Part shown: positions 11,574 to 27,929 of the stretch, one piece after another
Position numbering within the stretch: position 1 is the first letter of the stretch
Layout: every line of letters starts with the position of its first letter
Made by a program: the position numbers and the translations under genes
Source: a virus
Virus record (IMG/VR): IMGVR_UViG_3300042511_000079
Coordinates: 1-30,605 of that record
Direction: 5' to 3' (one strand)
Length of the DNA stretch: 30,605 nt
Notes under the pieces: model-generated
Told to the model about the DNA's origin: nothing
Database searches by the model: none
What the model saw: only the letters and a program-made list of their open reading frames with translations

Positions 11574-11711
11574 ATGATTAAGTTACTTGAGTTTATTAAG
11601 CAAAATAAATTTGTTCTATACAAAGATGGTAAATGGTATAGTACAAAAGATTTTCCTGCAATCTTTTATGATGAAATTGAATTAATTAAACTATTTAACG
11701 ACAGTCTATGA
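11574..11711 (+). CDS. Hypothetical protein, 45 aa
   Basis: The start is placed at ATG 11574 (MIKLLEFIKQNKFVLYKDGK...), after the TATATTTG box. The frame is open back to 11502 but that part would precede the promoter. No family is recognised. The product looks like a compact alpha/beta peptide with a GKWYST turn. The stop overlaps the endonuclease VII start (ATGA), so the two genes form a small plus-strand operon opposed to the late genes. Confidence 0.5.
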   Translation: MIKLLEFIKQNKFVLYKDGKWYSTKDFPAIFYDEIELIKLFNDSL

Positions 11712-12154
11712 TATGTACTAAATGTAAAATTGAAAAAGACAATTCTTTATTTAGGATTAGACTTAATTCAAAATCAGGTTTTCAATATTGGTGTAAAGGT
11801 TGCGAATATCAGGCTAACAAAAAACGGTATATTGCAAAACCAAAGCGTATTGTAATACCAAAAGAAAAAGATTCAATAAAACTAGATGCATTAAAAAGGA
11901 TGTTAAAATTTAGGTATAATATTACCCATCAAGAATATACTGAAATGTACCACCTACAAAACCATTCTTGCAAGATATGTAATACATCTAAATCTTTAGG
12001 AGGGGGAAATGGATTGCAAGTTGACCATTGTCATAGAACAGGAAAGGTAAGAGCCTTATTATGTCCTAATTGTAATACATTATTAGGTAGTTGTAATGAT
12101 AATATAGATATATTAGAATCTTCTATTTTATATTTAAAAGAACATAGCCAATAA
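11708..12154 (+). CDS. Endonuclease VII-type nuclease
   Basis: 148 residues. The core is the T4 gp49/endonuclease VII motif: zinc ligands CKIC (88-91) and CPNC (119-122), catalytic LQVDHCHRTGKVRALLC with D106-H107-C108-H109, and N-terminal-half helices. An extra N-terminal zinc knuckle is formed by C3, C6, C29 and C32 (CTKC...WCKGC). True endonuclease VII cuts branched DNA before packaging. Many phage relatives behave as stand-alone HNH mobile nucleases. Its plus orientation inside the minus-strand structural genes, with its own promoter and structured DNA on both sides, suits either a late insertion or a separately timed gene. Confidence 0.82.
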   Translation: MICTKCKIEKDNSLFRIRLNSKSGFQYWCKGCEYQANKKRYIAKPKRIVIPKEKDSIKLDALKRMLKFRYNITHQEYTEMYHLQNHSCKICNTSKSLGGGNGLQVDHCHRTGKVRALLCPNCNTLLGSCNDNIDILESSILYLKEHSQ

Positions 12155-13061: not shown

Positions 13062-14012
13062 TTAAATTGCTACCTTAACGATTTCATCAGGGAAAGCTAC
13101 ATTCACACCCATTTTGAACTCTGCTGCAAAACGAACTTCATCAGCCTCTTTTGCGAAGAAAATTTCAAACTTTTCTTCTTCGTTCAATAAATCTGTACCC
13201 AAGAACAAGTTGCTTAAACGCATTGCATAAACATCATTTGTTCCGTTTAATCCTTGTAAAGCTACTACTTTAATAGAAGTACCCGGAAGTACAAATTCAG
13301 AATCTGCTTTAACATCAATTGAATATTGGAACATATTAGCGTTCTTCAATGCAATAGTGTAAGTTCTAAAAGTATCTTGACCACAAACGATAACCATATC
13401 ATCAGCAGCTACTACTTTAGCAGGGATTGCTTTGTAAACACCATCAAATAAGCTAACGACATTAGCTGCAGTGATAGAACTCAAAGGAGCACCTGAAATA
13501 AATCCTGATACATTCGCATCAACTACACCACTTGCAGCACCGATTAATTTGATGAAACCATCAAACTTATTTAAGTTACCATTAGCAGAAGCAGTATCAC
13601 CTTGCCATAAAGCAGTCTCTAATTGAGAAGCAATTGTTTTAGCTTTTCTATCAGAATAGTCTTGCTCAAAAGGAATTGAATCATAAGTTGAACCTGTTGG
13701 TAAAGCCTTTTGTAAGTATTTAGCTTCTAATGCTTTAGGGCATAATGCTTCTTGTACTTTGATTTTACCTACTGTTACAGTTCTTTGTGTAAAAGAAGTT
13801 GTACCTGATGCGTTCCATCCGCAAGTACCACCTGCTTGAAAGAAAGCATCTGTATCCATAATGTTGATAGTTTCTGCTGATTTAACACCGACCATAACAT
13901 TACCTACACTTTTAATAAGGGCAGCAGTTTTTGCACCTAATACAGATGAAGTCACTAACTGTGCTTCGTTTTCTTTTGTATAGTTGCTTAATGTACTAAT
14001 TGAAAATGACAT
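13062..14012 (-). CDS. Major capsid protein (HK97 fold)
   Basis: 316 residues. Features fit an HK97-type capsid: an N-terminal helical segment, the E-loop-like stretch with GGTCGWNASGTTSFTQRTV, QDYSDRKAKTIASQLETALWQGD (spine helix region), the A-domain core VVAADDMVIVCGQDTFRTY, and a C-terminal beta region (EVRFAAEFKMGVNVAFPDEIVKVAI). It follows the scaffold gene by 11 bp and is followed by a strong terminator, the normal arrangement for the most abundant virion protein. There is no long N-terminal delta domain, which agrees with a separate scaffold gene upstream. Confidence 0.85.
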   Translation of the reverse strand: MSFSISTLSNYTKENEAQLVTSSVLGAKTAALIKSVGNVMVGVKSAETINIMDTDAFFQAGGTCGWNASGTTSFTQRTVTVGKIKVQEALCPKALEAKYLQKALPTGSTYDSIPFEQDYSDRKAKTIASQLETALWQGDTASANGNLNKFDGFIKLIGAASGVVDANVSGFISGAPLSSITAANVVSLFDGVYKAIPAKVVAADDMVIVCGQDTFRTYTIALKNANMFQYSIDVKADSEFVLPGTSIKVVALQGLNGTNDVYAMRLSNLFLGTDLLNEEEKFEIFFAKEADEVRFAAEFKMGVNVAFPDEIVKVAI

Positions 14013-14663: not shown

Positions 14664-14696
14664 TTAACCGTTCATCCCTAATATTTACCGTTCATC
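14664..14696 (-). promoter_or_regulatory. Tandem CGGTAA element, copy B
   Basis: On the minus strand, GATGAACGGTAA is followed after 8 bp by GATGAACGGTTAA, giving CGGT boxes 20 bp apart (first C at 14690 and 14670). The second box has TTAA in place of TAA. It lies between the divergent scaffold gene (14620) and the plus-strand island (14790). Geometry relative to 14790 mirrors copies A and C. Confidence 0.6.
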
Positions 14697-14724
14697 AAAT
14701 TAATCAAAAAAAGTGGGGCAAATG

Positions 14725-14756
14725 TTTGGAATGTGTTTAAAACCTGTGTACTTTTA
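14725..14756 (+). promoter_or_regulatory. Putative promoter of the 14790 island
   Basis: TTTG (14725-14728), a 20 bp spacer, then TACTTTTA (14749-14756), one base off TAnnTTTG. The block ATGTTTGGAA here (14722-14731) recurs upstream of the gene at 25687, at nearly the same distance (24-25 bp) from the CGGTAA boxes, in both cases preceded by GGCAA. This supports a shared promoter design. Confidence 0.5.
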
Positions 14757-14789
14757 CTATGTCATTGAGAGACACAAAAAACAAACACT

Positions 14790-14891
14790 ATGAAACACAA
14801 AACACTCCCTGCTCCAATTGAAGTTAAGTTATTCCTTACTTTAATTATTTCAGCTATTGCTTCAGTTTTAATCCAATTTTTAATCAAATAA
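14790..14891 (+). CDS. Tiny membrane protein, 33 aa
   Basis: ATG 14790 reads MKHKTLPAPIEVKLFLTLII and continues to a single hydrophobic helix ending ...SVLIQFLIK, then TAA. The leader AAAAAACAAACACTATG matches those of the other CGGTAA-linked genes. It is followed 10 bp later by the 90-residue gene. Two similarly tiny one-helix proteins lie in the accessory cluster at 23940-24065 and 24767-24850. Its role is unknown; a membrane-acting peptide is likely from sequence alone. Confidence 0.55.
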   Translation: MKHKTLPAPIEVKLFLTLIISAIASVLIQFLIK

Positions 14892-14901
14892 AATAACAAC
14901 T

Positions 14902-15174
14902 ATGAAAAGAGTTCGTTTTTACAATCTAGGTTACATCGGTCACAATGCCGAACCATTTCAACAATTATTTAGTGAGTATTCAAAAATGCCAAATCAGTAT
15001 GGAAATTTTCTTGAGTTTGAAAATGTTACTGAAGGAATTAATGAAGGAGTTGCAGTTGTTTCCAATTGCTTTGAAAGTGAATCTCATTTTAATGAAGTTT
15101 TAATGAACAAATTAAAATGGTTCTATCTTGAATCAAAAATGAAAAGTTCTGAATTATATAAACAAATTATCTAA
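14902..15174 (+). CDS. Hypothetical protein, 90 aa
   Basis: No family recognised. Begins MKRVRFYNLGYIGHNAEPFQ; soluble, with an acidic centre (EFENVTEGINEGVAVVSNCF) and a basic helical C-terminus. It belongs to the plus-strand island inserted between scaffold and protease, preceded by the 33-residue membrane peptide and followed 19 bp later by the 192-residue gene. All three have A-rich '...AACTATGAAAA' starts, indicating one operon. Confidence 0.6.
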   Translation: MKRVRFYNLGYIGHNAEPFQQLFSEYSKMPNQYGNFLEFENVTEGINEGVAVVSNCFESESHFNEVLMNKLKWFYLESKMKSSELYKQII

Positions 15175-15193
15175 ATTATAAAAACTAAAAACT

Positions 15194-15772
15194 ATGAAAA
15201 ATTTAATTGAAAAGTATGAAAGTCTAGGTTATGTACTAACCGTTAAAGAAGAATTAAACATTGCCCTGTGTATGAAAGCTAAAAGCAAAGCTAGATTCCC
15301 TAAAGCATTATTTAATTACAGGTTCAAAAGTCCTGAAAGAATGGCTGAATATTGTTCTGAATGGATTGAAAGAATTGAAAGAAGAATACAAGAAGCAAAT
15401 GTTTTATTAGCCATCAAAAAAGAAGCACAAAAGAATATGAACCACAATTTTGTAGAAGGTTCAATCATTTACAATTCTTGGGGATATGACCAAACTAATA
15501 TTGACTTCTATCAAATTGTAGAAGTTAAAACAAAGTCAGTAATTATAAGAAGAATAGAAAGTTGCTATGTTTCAGGAACTGAAGGTTTTATGTGTGCTAA
15601 TGTTAAGCCTATCAAAGATTGTTTTTTAGGTGAACCGATTCTTAAAAAGATTGTAACTTCAGTTAATTATAGCGGAAATATAAGTTATCACATAAAAGCA
15701 AAATATGGATGTTTCTGCAATTTCATTGAAAGCAAAGAAGAAAAAGGAGTTTATTCTAGTTGGTATGCTTAA
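15194..15772 (+). CDS. Conserved hypothetical protein of accessory type, 192 aa
   Basis: The N-terminal third is helical and basic (RMAEYCSEWIERIERRIQEA). The C-terminal two thirds is beta-rich, with the recognisable stretch GSIIYNSWGYDQTNIDFYQIVEV followed by KSVIIRRI. I know this stretch from uncharacterised proteins spread across plasmids and phages of several phyla. The function is not known. The 161-residue gene at 25205 has the same general layout (basic helix, then 'SDVAAYEVVRQV...VEVRAL'), so the two may be distant relatives. Both are linked to a CGGTAA element. Confidence 0.62.
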   Translation: MKNLIEKYESLGYVLTVKEELNIALCMKAKSKARFPKALFNYRFKSPERMAEYCSEWIERIERRIQEANVLLAIKKEAQKNMNHNFVEGSIIYNSWGYDQTNIDFYQIVEVKTKSVIIRRIESCYVSGTEGFMCANVKPIKDCFLGEPILKKIVTSVNYSGNISYHIKAKYGCFCNFIESKEEKGVYSSWYA

Positions 15773-15817
15773 TAAACTAAATTTTGCTATTTATAATAAA
15801 TACATTAAATTACATAT

Positions 15818-15988
15818 ATGGAAATAATAATAGACAACAAGCCTGTAGAGATTGAACCAAAAGAAAGGATTCTAATGGAATTAATCAATGGCAGACCACC
15901 TGCTAATGAAGTTGAAAAACAATTGGCAGCACAAATAGAAGAAATGAAAAAACAAGGATTTACTCCATACATTCCTTCTAACCTTTAG
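15818..15988 (+). CDS. Small acidic ORF, 56 aa
   Basis: ATG 15818 reads MEIIIDNKPVEIEPKERILM and ends GFTPYIPSNL before TAG. Codon content is protein-like, with a helical, Glu/Lys-rich middle (VEKQLAAQIEEMKKQ). It ends 11 bp inside the 3' end of the convergent protease-kinase gene. It closes the plus-strand island, 45 bp after the 192-residue gene. No family recognised. Because it lies tail-to-tail with a zeta-like kinase it is tempting to suspect an antitoxin, but nothing in the sequence shows that. Confidence 0.5.
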   Translation: MEIIIDNKPVEIEPKERILMELINGRPPANEVEKQLAAQIEEMKKQGFTPYIPSNL

Positions 15989-17435
15989 ACTTATCTAAAA
16001 ATTTCTTATAAGAAGTTTTATCATAGATAGTCTCTTTACCATTAGCCTTGCTATATATAAGTTTAGGAGTTGAACCATTATTATCATATAAATGCAATTC
16101 ATTGAATACATTATTAGCAGCTAATTTTGGAAATATATTTGAAATTTCTCTGTGCATTTCTTTATTATAATCAGGTGGAACATATCTACCTGATGATACT
16201 GCTCGTTCTTGTGCTCTATTTAATGATGTTTGTACATCTGTAGTTACATAATGTGCTATAACATTTTTACCTGCATCTCTTTGCATTTGCACTTTATCAA
16301 CTACACTTTGATAGCTACCATCACCTACTGCATCTATTACAGTATCAAATTTTTTATTAATTGCATTCTTAACTAAATCTTTTGAAAGTTTTGAACTTTC
16401 TTCGTGAACTTTAGATGCTGCTTGAAAATTTTTAGTTTCAAGCATTTTATTATATTCAGGTAATTCTTCTTTGATTTTATCAGGGTCTACTCTTAAAATT
16501 CCTTCAGGATATGTTACCTGACCTGATTTTTCTAGTGAACTTTTACCTGTTGCAGGTGCACCACCTAAAAAAAATGTAGTACCTAAATTGGTAGAACCTG
16601 CAGCCATTTGTTTACTTACTATGTCTTTTTGAAATGCAACCCTTTCTTCATTAAAATTACCATCCTTATCTGAATATAATTTTAATGTATCAATATCACC
16701 TTTTATTAATTTATCTACACTTGCTTGAGCATCTTTTTGATATTTAGCTGCTATTTCTGCAGGTGTCATTCCATTTACTTTACCACCACCTGTTGATTCT
16801 TTACCACCACCGCCTTCAGGTCTCCTACCACTTCCCGGTCCACCTAATTCTACTTCGTTTAATATTTTATATATCTCACTCATTACCTGTTGTTCTTTAG
16901 GTATCTTTGGAGTATAATTAAATATTCCTTCAATAGAGAATCCATTAATCATACCTTCCTTAACCTTCTGCCATACTGCATCATTCTCAACTAACATAGA
17001 TACAAACCAACTACCATCAGGTGCATCTTCAAATCCTTTCATTGGTTGAATACCCCTAGACTTATCACTAATAAAACTTTCAAACATTGTAACCCCTGTT
17101 TCAATTTGGTTAGGGTCGTGCATTAAGTTTACATTGTTTTGGTAACCCTTTTTAAAGTACTTCTGTACAATCTTAACAATAGTATCCTTTGAGAATGCCA
17201 CATAATAATCACCGAAATTAGCATCACTTCTAAAAATAGGAGTGTCAGCCAACATAGCACAACCACTAATGATGTGCTTATCTTCACTAATGATTTGAAA
17301 CTTTTGTTCATTTTTAAAAGCATTCCAATTCTTTTGAATAGCAGGTCTATCAACTAAAGCGACAAACTGAACTTCAGCATCATCGTTTAAGTCATCTGAT
17401 ATTTCCAACATATATAATGGTAATTCCATACTCAT
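15978..17435 (-). CDS. XkdF-like head maturation protease fused to a zeta-toxin-type kinase
   Basis: 485 residues in three parts. Residues 1-175 are an XkdF-type serine protease domain: VALVDRPAIQKNW at the start, then H106 in NVNLMHDPN and S167 in INGFSIEG as likely catalytic residues. Residues 198-219 are a flexible linker, GGPGSGRRPEGGGG. Residues 230-465 are a zeta/UNAG kinase-like P-loop domain: Walker A GGAPATGKSS at 291-300, D317 in RVDPDKIKEELPEY, VIDAVGDGS at 367-373, and an arginine-rich lid region with NRAQERAVSSGRYVPP, then LHLYDNNG. Zeta toxins phosphorylate UDP-GlcNAc-type sugars. The gene follows the tape measure and precedes the scaffold, so the protein should enter the prohead. 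No epsilon-type antitoxin is seen. Confidence 0.8.
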   Translation of the reverse strand: MSMELPLYMLEISDDLNDDAEVQFVALVDRPAIQKNWNAFKNEQKFQIISEDKHIISGCAMLADTPIFRSDANFGDYYVAFSKDTIVKIVQKYFKKGYQNNVNLMHDPNQIETGVTMFESFISDKSRGIQPMKGFEDAPDGSWFVSMLVENDAVWQKVKEGMINGFSIEGIFNYTPKIPKEQQVMSEIYKILNEVELGGPGSGRRPEGGGGKESTGGGKVNGMTPAEIAAKYQKDAQASVDKLIKGDIDTLKLYSDKDGNFNEERVAFQKDIVSKQMAAGSTNLGTTFFLGGAPATGKSSLEKSGQVTYPEGILRVDPDKIKEELPEYNKMLETKNFQAASKVHEESSKLSKDLVKNAINKKFDTVIDAVGDGSYQSVVDKVQMQRDAGKNVIAHYVTTDVQTSLNRAQERAVSSGRYVPPDYNKEMHREISNIFPKLAANNVFNELHLYDNNGSTPKLIYSKANGKETIYDKTSYKKFLDKSKG

Positions 17436-25204: not shown

Positions 25205-25687
25205 TTAGAAATTATAATCATAGTGCATATAAGGTTTTTCAGTCATTCCCCATCTTCCTTTACCCCAACCTTTGCTTGATAAATGTATTCTTTTTATACC
25301 TGCATTTTCATTACTTGAATATTCATATGCTTGATTGTAATTATCAGAACAATGAGCAGAAAACCCACCAATATGAAATTCTTTTGGAAATACAGTTTGT
25401 TTAGCATTCAATGCTCTAACTTCAACTACAGTAGGACTAACTTGTCTTACAACTTCATAAGCCGCTACATCAGAATACATATAATAACTAATGTACTTTT
25501 TAACAGGATACTTTAATTTTGGTCTAGCATCTAAATACTTCTTTAATCTTTTTTCTGCATTTCTGATAAATTCACGAACTTCAGAAACTTCAGCTAAAGT
25601 ACATTTGCTACCTGCTTCATAAAATTCACCTGAATTAATTAATCCTTTTCTAAATTTGTTTTCCGCTTGTAAAAATTGATTGTTCAT
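25205..25687 (-). CDS. Conserved hypothetical protein of accessory type, 161 aa
   Basis: The start is taken at ATG 25687 (MNNQFLQAENKFRKGLINSG); an open extension to 25753 would run into the promoter area. N-terminal basic helix (VREFIRNAEKRLKKYLDAR), then a beta-rich domain with YMYSDVAAYEVVRQVSPTVVEVRAL, FHIGGFSAHCSDN and a C-terminal KPYMHYDYNF. I recall this pattern from uncharacterised proteins on plasmids and phages in many phyla. The leader CAAAAACAAACAAACTATG and the CGGTAA element C upstream group it with the 14790 and 322 transcripts. Confidence 0.66.
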   Translation of the reverse strand: MNNQFLQAENKFRKGLINSGEFYEAGSKCTLAEVSEVREFIRNAEKRLKKYLDARPKLKYPVKKYISYYMYSDVAAYEVVRQVSPTVVEVRALNAKQTVFPKEFHIGGFSAHCSDNYNQAYEYSSNENAGIKRIHLSSKGWGKGRWGMTEKPYMHYDYNF

Positions 25688-25719
25688 AGTTTGTTTGTTT
25701 TTGATACAGCGAAGATATA

Positions 25720-25753
25720 TAAACTTATATACTACTTCCAAACATATTGCCAA
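25720..25753 (-). promoter_or_regulatory. Putative promoter of the 25687 gene
   Basis: On the minus strand, TAAGTTTA (25727-25720) is one base off TAnnTTTG and lies 33 bp before the start codon. TTGGCAATATGTTTGGAAG begins at 25753, supplying a TTG 23 bp upstream. Its GGCAA and ATGTTTGGAA blocks match the promoter region of 14790. Confidence 0.42.
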
Positions 25754-27330: not shown

Positions 27331-27684
27331 TTATTTATCTAATTTAGACTTAAAATGCTCACAAAGTTTATCCATCTTGCTAACATAGTATGTCATAAAA
27401 TCTTTGAATCCTTCGTTATCTTGTTGATAGCTAACATACAAAATACCCCTTAATCTTTGTGATGGGGTTTTATTTGTTTCTAGGTCTGTCTTAATGCTAT
27501 CTATGTTATCTAGTTCATCCTGTTGAAATGGTTCTTCTTTGATGGCTATATAACAGAATCTTTGGTTAAGTTGAAATACCTGTGCTGCATCGTTTGGTGA
27601 TAGTTCTTGTGTTCCAAATGTTACCTTAATTGTTTTGTCCTTCCTAGAAGTTAAGCCTTCTATCTGTGCAGGTAGTATTATCAT
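27331..27684 (-). CDS. Hypothetical protein between HNH and terminase, 117 aa
   Basis: A beta-rich N-terminus (ILPAQIEGLTSRKDKTIKVTFGTQEL) and then SPNDAAQVFQLNQRFCYIAIK and TPSQRLRGILYVSYQQD. I have seen this 'psqRLRgvLyv...q...~~f~~fY...m' form in Bacteroidota phages just before terminase genes, always without a function. It overlaps the HNH gene by 4 bp. A packaging or DNA-binding accessory role is possible from location. Confidence 0.6.
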   Translation of the reverse strand: MIILPAQIEGLTSRKDKTIKVTFGTQELSPNDAAQVFQLNQRFCYIAIKEEPFQQDELDNIDSIKTDLETNKTPSQRLRGILYVSYQQDNEGFKDFMTYYVSKMDKLCEHFKSKLDK

Positions 27685-27929
27685 CCTAGTTTTTGTTTAT
27701 GTATGTCTTTTAAAAATTCTATATATTGTTTCTTGTCTCCGTATTCTATATGATGCTCTCTGCATAGTGCCATAAGATTATCTATTGTGTCTGCCTTCTT
27801 TGTTCCGCCCATTCCCCTTGCTTCTATGTGGTGAATGTCAACTGCCCTTGCTCCACAAGTTTCACAAGGTATAAAATCCTCACCTGTGTAACCAAAATGG
27901 TTTAGATACACTTTAGTGTGATTTTTCAT
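27681..27929 (-). CDS. HNH endonuclease
   Basis: 82 residues with a compact HNH site: CETC (C22, C25), VDIHHIEARGMGG (H33, H34), IDNLMALC (N51, C56) and H59-H60. Small HNH proteins next to terminase genes take part in DNA packaging with TerL in several phages (for example HK97 gp74). Its position two genes before the small terminase subunit fits. It overlaps the upstream glycosyltransferase by 17 bp. Confidence 0.85.
   Translation of the reverse strand: MKNHTKVYLNHFGYTGEDFIPCETCGARAVDIHHIEARGMGGTKKADTIDNLMALCREHHIEYGDKKQYIEFLKDIHKQKLG

What the first reader, a model, noticed from the sequence alone, without database searches (positions are those of the whole stretch)
15978..17435. Capsid protease fused to a zeta-toxin-type kinase: a candidate virion-packaged effector
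The gene joins an XkdF-like head protease domain (H106, S167), a GGPGSGRRPEGGGG linker and a P-loop kinase of the zeta type (Walker A 291-300, RVDPDK, NRAQERAVSSGRYVPP). The protease half should place the protein inside the prohead, so the kinase could be carried in the capsid and delivered with DNA. Known zeta toxins phosphorylate UDP-GlcNAc-type sugars and block wall synthesis. In an infecting phage this could disable host growth, exclude other phages or act on the sugar chemistry encoded at 27.9-30.05 kb. MuF-type toxin fusions in phage heads are documented. I do not know of an established XkdF-zeta system, though similar fusions may sit unnoticed in databases. No antitoxin-like epsilon gene is present.
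Basis: partly seen in the sequence, partly recalled or inferred. Interest (0 to 1): 0.78.

Follow-up and report, generated by a model that had tools for sequence, protein, structure and literature searches.

The report
Swappable toxins on phage head protease
In a family of freshwater viruses of Bacteroidota bacteria, the protease that matures the virus head carries an exchangeable toxin-like enzyme on its tail end (here a zeta-type kinase, in near-identical viruses a (p)ppApp-making toxin), and each toxin comes with its own neighbouring candidate antidote gene, which suggests that these viruses load toxins into their heads.

Summary
In detail: window 15978-17435 (-) encodes an XkdF-type head protease joined by GGPGSGRRPEGGGG to a zeta-fold kinase with intact Walker lysine (K298) and catalytic Asp (D319). 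Near-identical phages carry, behind the same linker, either this kinase, a Tas1/Apk-like (p)ppApp synthetase, or nothing. Between two phages with identical protease cores the DNA is about 98% identical on both sides of a block holding only the effector and its convergent partner. That partner is effector-specific: a 56-aa ORF with zeta (22/22 loci), a small alarmone hydrolase with Apk (28/28), neither without cargo (0/68). A Bacteroidetes-type promoter precedes the antisense operon. MuF-Apk2 prophage toxins are an experimentally proven parallel with the same kind of hydrolase antidote. Best reading: a polymorphic toxin-antidote system whose carrier is the head protease, probably packaged in the capsid and injected. 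Not supported: a UDP-GlcNAc target (three UNAG contacts are replaced; T118 is V370, a change that inactivates PezT) and 'no antitoxin gene'. Virion loading, toxicity and the 56-aa antidote's action are inferred. MuF-zeta and MuF-Apk fusions were known; I found no published XkdF carrier.

The parts
15978..17435 (-). XkdF protease - linker - zeta-type kinase fusion gene (485 aa)
16845..17435 (-). XkdF-type head protease, residues 1-197, ending in a short helix (VMSEIYKILNEVEL); in cargo-free relatives the protein stops here (194-198 aa)
16803..16844 (-). Linker GGPGSGRRPEGGGG (residues 198-211), shared by zeta and Apk cargo; also tags separate effectors and other phage proteins
15981..16700 (-). 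Zeta-fold kinase domain (residues 246-485; K298, D319, R407, R417 conserved; V370 and D372 in place of the UNAG contacts T118 and R120)
15780..16787 (.). Swapped block: in the near-identical virus L022 this stretch is replaced by an Apk-like domain + 72-aa ORF + alarmone hydrolase; flanks 97.9% and 91.7% identical
   Evidence: L001, identical to the window over this region, vs L022; also L007 vs L029
15818..15988 (+). 56-aa ORF convergent with and overlapping the kinase 3' end; candidate kinase antidote; median dN/dS 0.19
15194..15772 (+). 192-aa gene of unknown function present with both zeta and Apk cargo (50/50 loci), absent without cargo; median dN/dS 0.23
14902..15174 (+). 90-aa gene, variable member of the antisense operon; a homologue also follows a MuF-zeta fusion (L106, by eye)
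14790..14891 (+). 33-aa predicted membrane peptide MKHKTLPAPIEVKLFLTLIISAIASVLIQFLIK, conserved first ORF of the antisense operon in many cassette loci
14725..14756 (+). Promoter-like site TTTG-N20-TACTTTTA; many relatives have the Bacteroidetes consensus TTTG-N20-TATATTTG at this place
14676..16893 (.). Whole cassette (C-terminal extension + antisense operon) without counterpart in cargo-free relatives, where protease and scaffold genes are about 40 bp apart
   Evidence: L001 vs L048
14024..14620 (-). Scaffold-like head gene next to the cassette (matches the C-terminal part of phrog_24921, whose N-terminal part matches the protease)
13062..14012 (-). Major capsid protein candidate

Best explanation
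The gene is the toxin of a polymorphic toxin-antidote cassette whose carrier is the head maturation protease. Shown: a constant XkdF protease, a constant linker, and a C-terminal enzyme exchanged between near-identical phages as a block with an effector-specific convergent gene; the alternative cargo belongs to a proven toxin family (Tas1/Apk) and its partner to the family of its known enzymatic antidotes. Inferred: the protease half brings the fusion into the prohead; the kinase stays in the head, fused or cut free at the linker, and enters the next cell with the DNA, where it phosphorylates a small metabolite (probably not UDP-GlcNAc) and arrests or reprograms the host or a rival phage. The antisense operon, read from a host-type promoter, supplies the 56-aa antidote that protects the producing cell until lysis and may restrain the effector after infection.
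For: Same protease with zeta, Apk or no cargo. DNA identity 98.8% then 97.7% flanking a non-homologous block that begins just past the linker and ends at the next gene (L007 vs L029). Perfect pairing: zeta with the 56-aa ORF 22/22, Apk with hydrolase 28/28, none 0/68; tree-independent pairs 6/6 (p=0.031) and 7/7 (p=0.016); at least 22-26 label changes on the protease tree. Apk domain: Tas1 6ox6 E=1.3e-44; model pLDDT 93.6, TM 0.80 to Tas1. Hydrolase: SAH structures E=1.4e-7 with invariant HD and DR..N motifs. The 56-, 72-, 174- and 192-aa genes are under purifying selection (median dN/dS 0.14-0.23). Promoter motif in most cassettes. MuF-Apk2 toxins have IapK + Aph1 immunity, tested in E. coli (PMC12226406). 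The same zeta family is also fused to MuF (L106, PF04233 E=4.8e-12), and a PSS2 minor head protein holds a relative. In L020/L021 the kinase is a separate gene that starts with its own short N-terminal segment and the GGPGSGR tag.
Against: No test of toxicity, neutralisation or virion content. The 56-aa ORF has no known homologue and no detected similarity to epsilon/PezA. Two other extensions, the about 110-aa type and the unidentified one of L156, have no antisense genes, so the slot can hold cargo without an antidote. Most relatives lack any cargo. The protease half was modelled poorly, so nothing is known about cleavage. In a phage that kills its host anyway the benefit of a toxin is not obvious.
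Confidence: 0.62

Rival explanations
1. The cassette is a selfish toxin-antidote element (moron) that uses the protease gene only as an expression site: the effector acts in the cell where it is made, for example to exclude co-infecting phages without the antidote, and delivery in virions plays no part.
For: Antidote operon has its own host-type promoter motif; frequent gain, loss and swap; in L020/L021 protease and kinase are separate genes.
Against: The fusion to the protease is kept in nearly all carriers; even the separate kinase keeps the linker tag; the related carriers MuF and portal are virion proteins; the tag occurs on several proteins of single other phages (L120, L163).
Confidence: 0.2
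2. Anti-defence injected protein: the kinase and the Apk domain change host nucleotides on entry to disable host nucleotide-signalling defences, as T4 internal proteins counter restriction, and the antidote only limits damage.
For: T4 packages diverse anti-restriction proteins with one targeting sequence (PMC3012670); the high diversity of the slot would fit an arms race.
Against: The tested activity of the Apk family is growth-inhibiting (PMC12226406); no defence target is known.
Confidence: 0.1
3. The kinase is a nucleic-acid or nucleotide kinase (polynucleotide-kinase-like) that serves phage DNA repair or replication and is not a toxin.
For: Weak hits to AAA_33 and to a polynucleotide-kinase PHROG; UNAG contacts are not conserved.
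Against: Zeta, AvrRxo1 and PezT are the closest folds, PNKs are weaker; it occupies the same slot as a (p)ppApp synthetase toxin and has its own strictly paired convergent gene.
Confidence: 0.08

Closest known systems
MuF polymorphic toxins of prophages (PMC5576092; Apk2-IapK-Aph1 PMC12226406; Bxa PMC11699363)
   Same: Constant head-protein N-terminus, variable C-terminal toxin including Apk, adjacent immunity genes, hydrolase immunity for Apk; proposed loading into the virion head
   Different: Carrier is the XkdF protease, not MuF; antidote is convergent on the opposite strand behind its own promoter motif; phages of about 35 kb in which no integrase or resolvase was found
Polyvalent proteins of phages (Iyer 2017, PMC5512222), including MuF-zeta and MuF-RelA/SpoT
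   Same: Zeta-like kinase and RelA/SpoT domains fused to head proteins; predicted injection
   Different: There assemblin-like peptidases are always C-terminal; here the protease is N-terminal and the effector C-terminal; the main text does not mention XkdF fusions
Epsilon/zeta and PezAT toxin-antitoxin systems
   Same: Kinase fold, P-loop, catalytic Asp, LID arginines
   Different: No epsilon/PezA gene recognised; UNAG contacts T118, R120 and E100 replaced; the domain is part of a fusion
Tas1-Tis1 (T6SS) and FaRel with SAH antitoxin
   Same: The alternative cargo is Tas1-like, paired with a small alarmone hydrolase and usually a second small gene
   Different: Carrier is a phage head protease
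T4 internal proteins with capsid targeting sequence
   Same: Analogy only: a common targeting sequence brings diverse proteins into the prohead (compare the tag of L020/L021)
   Different: No sequence relation tested; different protease family

Membership tests
Zeta toxin family (PF06414) | Profile match and kinase fold | tested here: met
   Pfam 2.6e-25; PDB profile 7.6e-9; Foldseek 1gvn 2.3e-10
Zeta toxin family (PF06414) | Walker A Lys, catalytic Asp (D67), LID Arg | tested here: met
   K298, D319, R407, R417 invariant
UNAG-kinase zeta/PezT subgroup | UNAG contacts E100, T118, R120 | tested here: not met
   K352, V370, D372 (contacts from PMC3062530)
Epsilon/zeta TA system | Epsilon/PezA-type antitoxin | tested here: not met
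   No epsilon/PezA match in Pfam for the neighbouring ORFs; a 56-aa gene of unknown family instead
XkdF / Peptidase_S78_2 head proteases | Profile match, His/Ser conserved, head-gene context | tested here: met
   H106 and S167 invariant; next to scaffold-like and MCP genes
MuF polymorphic toxins | N-terminal MuF domain | tested here: not met
   No PF04233 match in the window protein
MuF polymorphic toxins | Encoded by temperate phages | tested here: inconclusive
   No integrase or resolvase in 14 relatives of 29.8-36.3 kb, but records may be incomplete
Polymorphic toxin systems (general) | Constant N-terminal carrier with exchangeable C-terminal toxin domains | tested here: met
Polymorphic toxin systems (general) | Effector-specific adjacent immunity gene | tested here: met
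   Met for presence: strict pairing by position and co-occurrence; hydrolase activity and the action of the 56-aa protein not assayed
Polymorphic toxin systems (general) | Toxicity and delivery to another cell | not testable with these tools
   Needs expression tests and virion proteomics
Tas1/Apk family (alternative cargo) | Homology and fold | tested here: met
   6ox6_A 1.3e-44; model TM 0.80

The most novel reading that the evidence does not exclude
The short segment plus GGPGSGR-type linker is a general plug for loading effectors into phage heads: it couples unrelated carriers (XkdF protease, portal) to unrelated effectors (zeta, Apk, PBECR nucleases), also works as an N-terminal tag on separate proteins, and so makes capsid cargo exchangeable across phages.
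Probability: 0.3. Interest if true: 0.85.

Novelty: new variant of a known kind. Interest (0 to 1): 0.72.

Why it matters
It adds a second head protein, the maturation protease, to MuF as a carrier of exchangeable toxins, in aquatic phages that may be virulent. It gives natural near-isogenic phages differing mainly in cargo (zeta, Apk, none), which makes the open question of what capsid-borne toxins do for a phage directly testable, and it predicts a new zeta antidote family and a zeta substrate other than UDP-GlcNAc.

Tried and rejected
Pfam, NCBIfam and PADLOC gave nothing convincing for the small cassette proteins tested. The 72-aa ORF had no PDB match, so calling it IapK-like rests on position only. 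The L156 extension looks like an ADP-ribosyltransferase by eye, but Pfam does not support it and no relatives were found; it is left unidentified. The link to the sugar genes at 27.9-30 kb was rejected for lack of evidence. The Bacteroides DAC phage zeta genes are separate proteins with no annotated head context and add nothing. Prophage copies of the cassette were not found: none of the 9 genome hits shows a recognised cargo domain.

Full report
OBSERVATION. The ORF at 15978-17435 (-) is real and has the two domains described: XkdF protease (Pfam 7.7e-15) and zeta kinase (2.6e-25). The catalytic residues of both halves are invariant in 13 aligned fusions. The intact fusion recurs in about 25 IMG/VR contigs. 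The kinase matches pSM19035 zeta by profile (7.6e-9) and by predicted fold (zeta, then AvrRxo1 and PezT). The protease half of the model is poor and is not used.

THE SLOT IS POLYMORPHIC. Relatives with the same protease end either at residue ~195 (most of them), or continue through GGPGSGRRPEGGG into the zeta kinase, into a ~200-aa domain, or rarely into other extensions. The ~200-aa domain is a Tas1/Apk-type (p)ppApp synthetase: profile against Tas1 1.3e-44, model pLDDT 93.6 and TM 0.80 to 6ox6. Two further linker variants (GGEGSGC..GDNCGRPKG and VERDE(S/G)GRFAPKGGG) also carry both zeta and Apk, so linker and cargo vary independently.

EFFECTOR AND ANTIDOTE MOVE TOGETHER. Cargo-free relatives have about 40 bp between protease and scaffold-like genes. 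Zeta and Apk carriers have an antisense operon there. Its last gene is effector-specific: a 56-aa ORF with zeta (22/22 loci with enough sequence), a 174-aa HD protein with Apk (28/28), neither in 68 cargo-free loci. The HD protein is a small alarmone hydrolase (1.4e-7 to solved SAHs) with invariant HD..ED and DR..N motifs. L007 (zeta) and L029 (Apk) are 98.8% identical up to base 652 of the gene, share nothing for the next 1.0 or 1.35 kb, and are 97.7% identical again from the end of the 192-aa gene. L001, which is identical to the window over this region, and L022 show the same: 97.9% upstream, 91.7% downstream. The exchanged block is window 15780-16787. A protease tree needs at least 22-26 changes of cargo, and independent pairs support zeta with the 56-aa ORF 6/6 and Apk with hydrolase 7/7. 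The four small genes tested are under purifying selection. The antisense operon starts at a Bacteroidetes-type promoter motif (consensus from my own knowledge), TTTG-N20-TATATTTG in many relatives, degenerate in the window.

KNOWN PARALLEL. MuF-Apk2 toxins of prophages are followed by IapK, which blocks the active site, and Aph1, an HD hydrolase; the Apk2 domains are toxic in E. coli and both immunities neutralise them (PMC12226406). Bacteroidales MuF toxins include Apk with an Aph1-like neighbour (PMC11699363). Here, 23 of the 28 Apk loci have a 72-aa ORF right after the toxin, where IapK sits, plus the hydrolase. MuF-zeta fusions were reported in 2017 (PMC5512222), and one is in our set, of the same zeta family and followed by homologues (by eye) of the 90- and 192-aa genes (L106). 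That paper notes assemblin-like peptidases only at C-termini. I found no paper on XkdF carriers, within an open-access library.

SUBSTRATE. Zeta binds UNAG through D67, E100, T118 and R120, and the T-to-V change at the T118 position in PezT abolishes toxicity (PMC3062530). The alignment, gap-free over this stretch, places K352, V370 and D372 at E100, T118 and R120, all invariant in the 8-sequence alignment A1. UNAG is therefore an unlikely substrate. AvrRxo1, the next closest fold, phosphorylates NAD (PMC5923241), so NAD as well as nucleotide sugars should be tested.

DELIVERY. Inferred. The carrier is a head protease; related carriers are MuF and, in other phages, portal proteins joined by GGPGSGRKPEGG to PBECR1 or DUF4258 domains (L171, L132). 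In L020/L021 the kinase is a separate gene beginning MKREQAIELIRFVRF-GGPGSGR (L020), and single phages such as L120 and L163 have several proteins with this tag. This resembles T4's capsid targeting sequence on diverse internal proteins (PMC3012670), but no homology was tested.

LIFESTYLE AND HOST. Fourteen relatives of 29.8-36.3 kb have no integrase or resolvase match. The nearest cultured phage with a related protease, Nonlabens phage P12024L, has a 35.7-kb genome. Cellular hits are mainly in Chitinophaga, Mucilaginibacter and Flavobacteriaceae. The host of the window phage is therefore probably a Bacteroidota, and the phage may be virulent, unlike MuF carriers.

VERDICT. Confirmed fusion, and a new carrier for a known kind of weapon. 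The strongest shown facts are the block exchange and the strict pairing of effector and candidate antidote. Toxicity, packaging and the action of the 56-aa protein remain to be tested.

Noticed in passing
L171:1516-3387 (-), L132:2773-4542 (-): Portal proteins (Phage_portal_3) joined through GGPGSGRKPEGG to a PBECR1 nuclease domain (L171) or a DUF4258-like domain (L132): the same linker with another carrier and other effectors.
   Followed up: partly
L120, L163, L113, L114, L124: Unrelated phages encode several proteins each carrying one or more GGPGSGR tags, often right after a short N-terminal segment.
   Followed up: no
L020:8887-9801, L021:8575-9489: Protease and zeta kinase are separate adjacent genes; the kinase keeps a 15-aa N-terminal segment and the GGPGSGR tag.
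   Followed up: partly
L156:1638-2768: XkdF protease with a different unidentified C-terminal domain (ADP-ribosyltransferase-like by eye only) and no antisense genes.
   Followed up: partly
L050, L115, L119, L136: A further short (about 110 aa) C-terminal extension behind the linker, without antidote genes; it ends in a helix-like tail as the protease does.
   Followed up: no
window 15194-15772 and 25205-25753: The 192-aa cassette protein and the 182-aa protein near the terminase genes look similar by eye; the 192-aa family occurs with zeta, Apk and MuF-zeta, function unknown.
   Followed up: no
window 14790-14891: 33-aa predicted membrane peptide conserved at the start of the antisense operon.
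   Followed up: partly
L268 (Nonlabens phage P12024L, gene 1, 179-1228): A 349-aa protein whose N-terminus matches this protease and whose length fits phrog_24921 (protease + scaffold-like part); in the window family the two are separate genes and the cassette sits between them.
   Followed up: partly
window 11708-12154 and 27681-27929: Two HNH-type genes by eye, one on the opposite strand within the late region, possibly homing-like.
   Followed up: no
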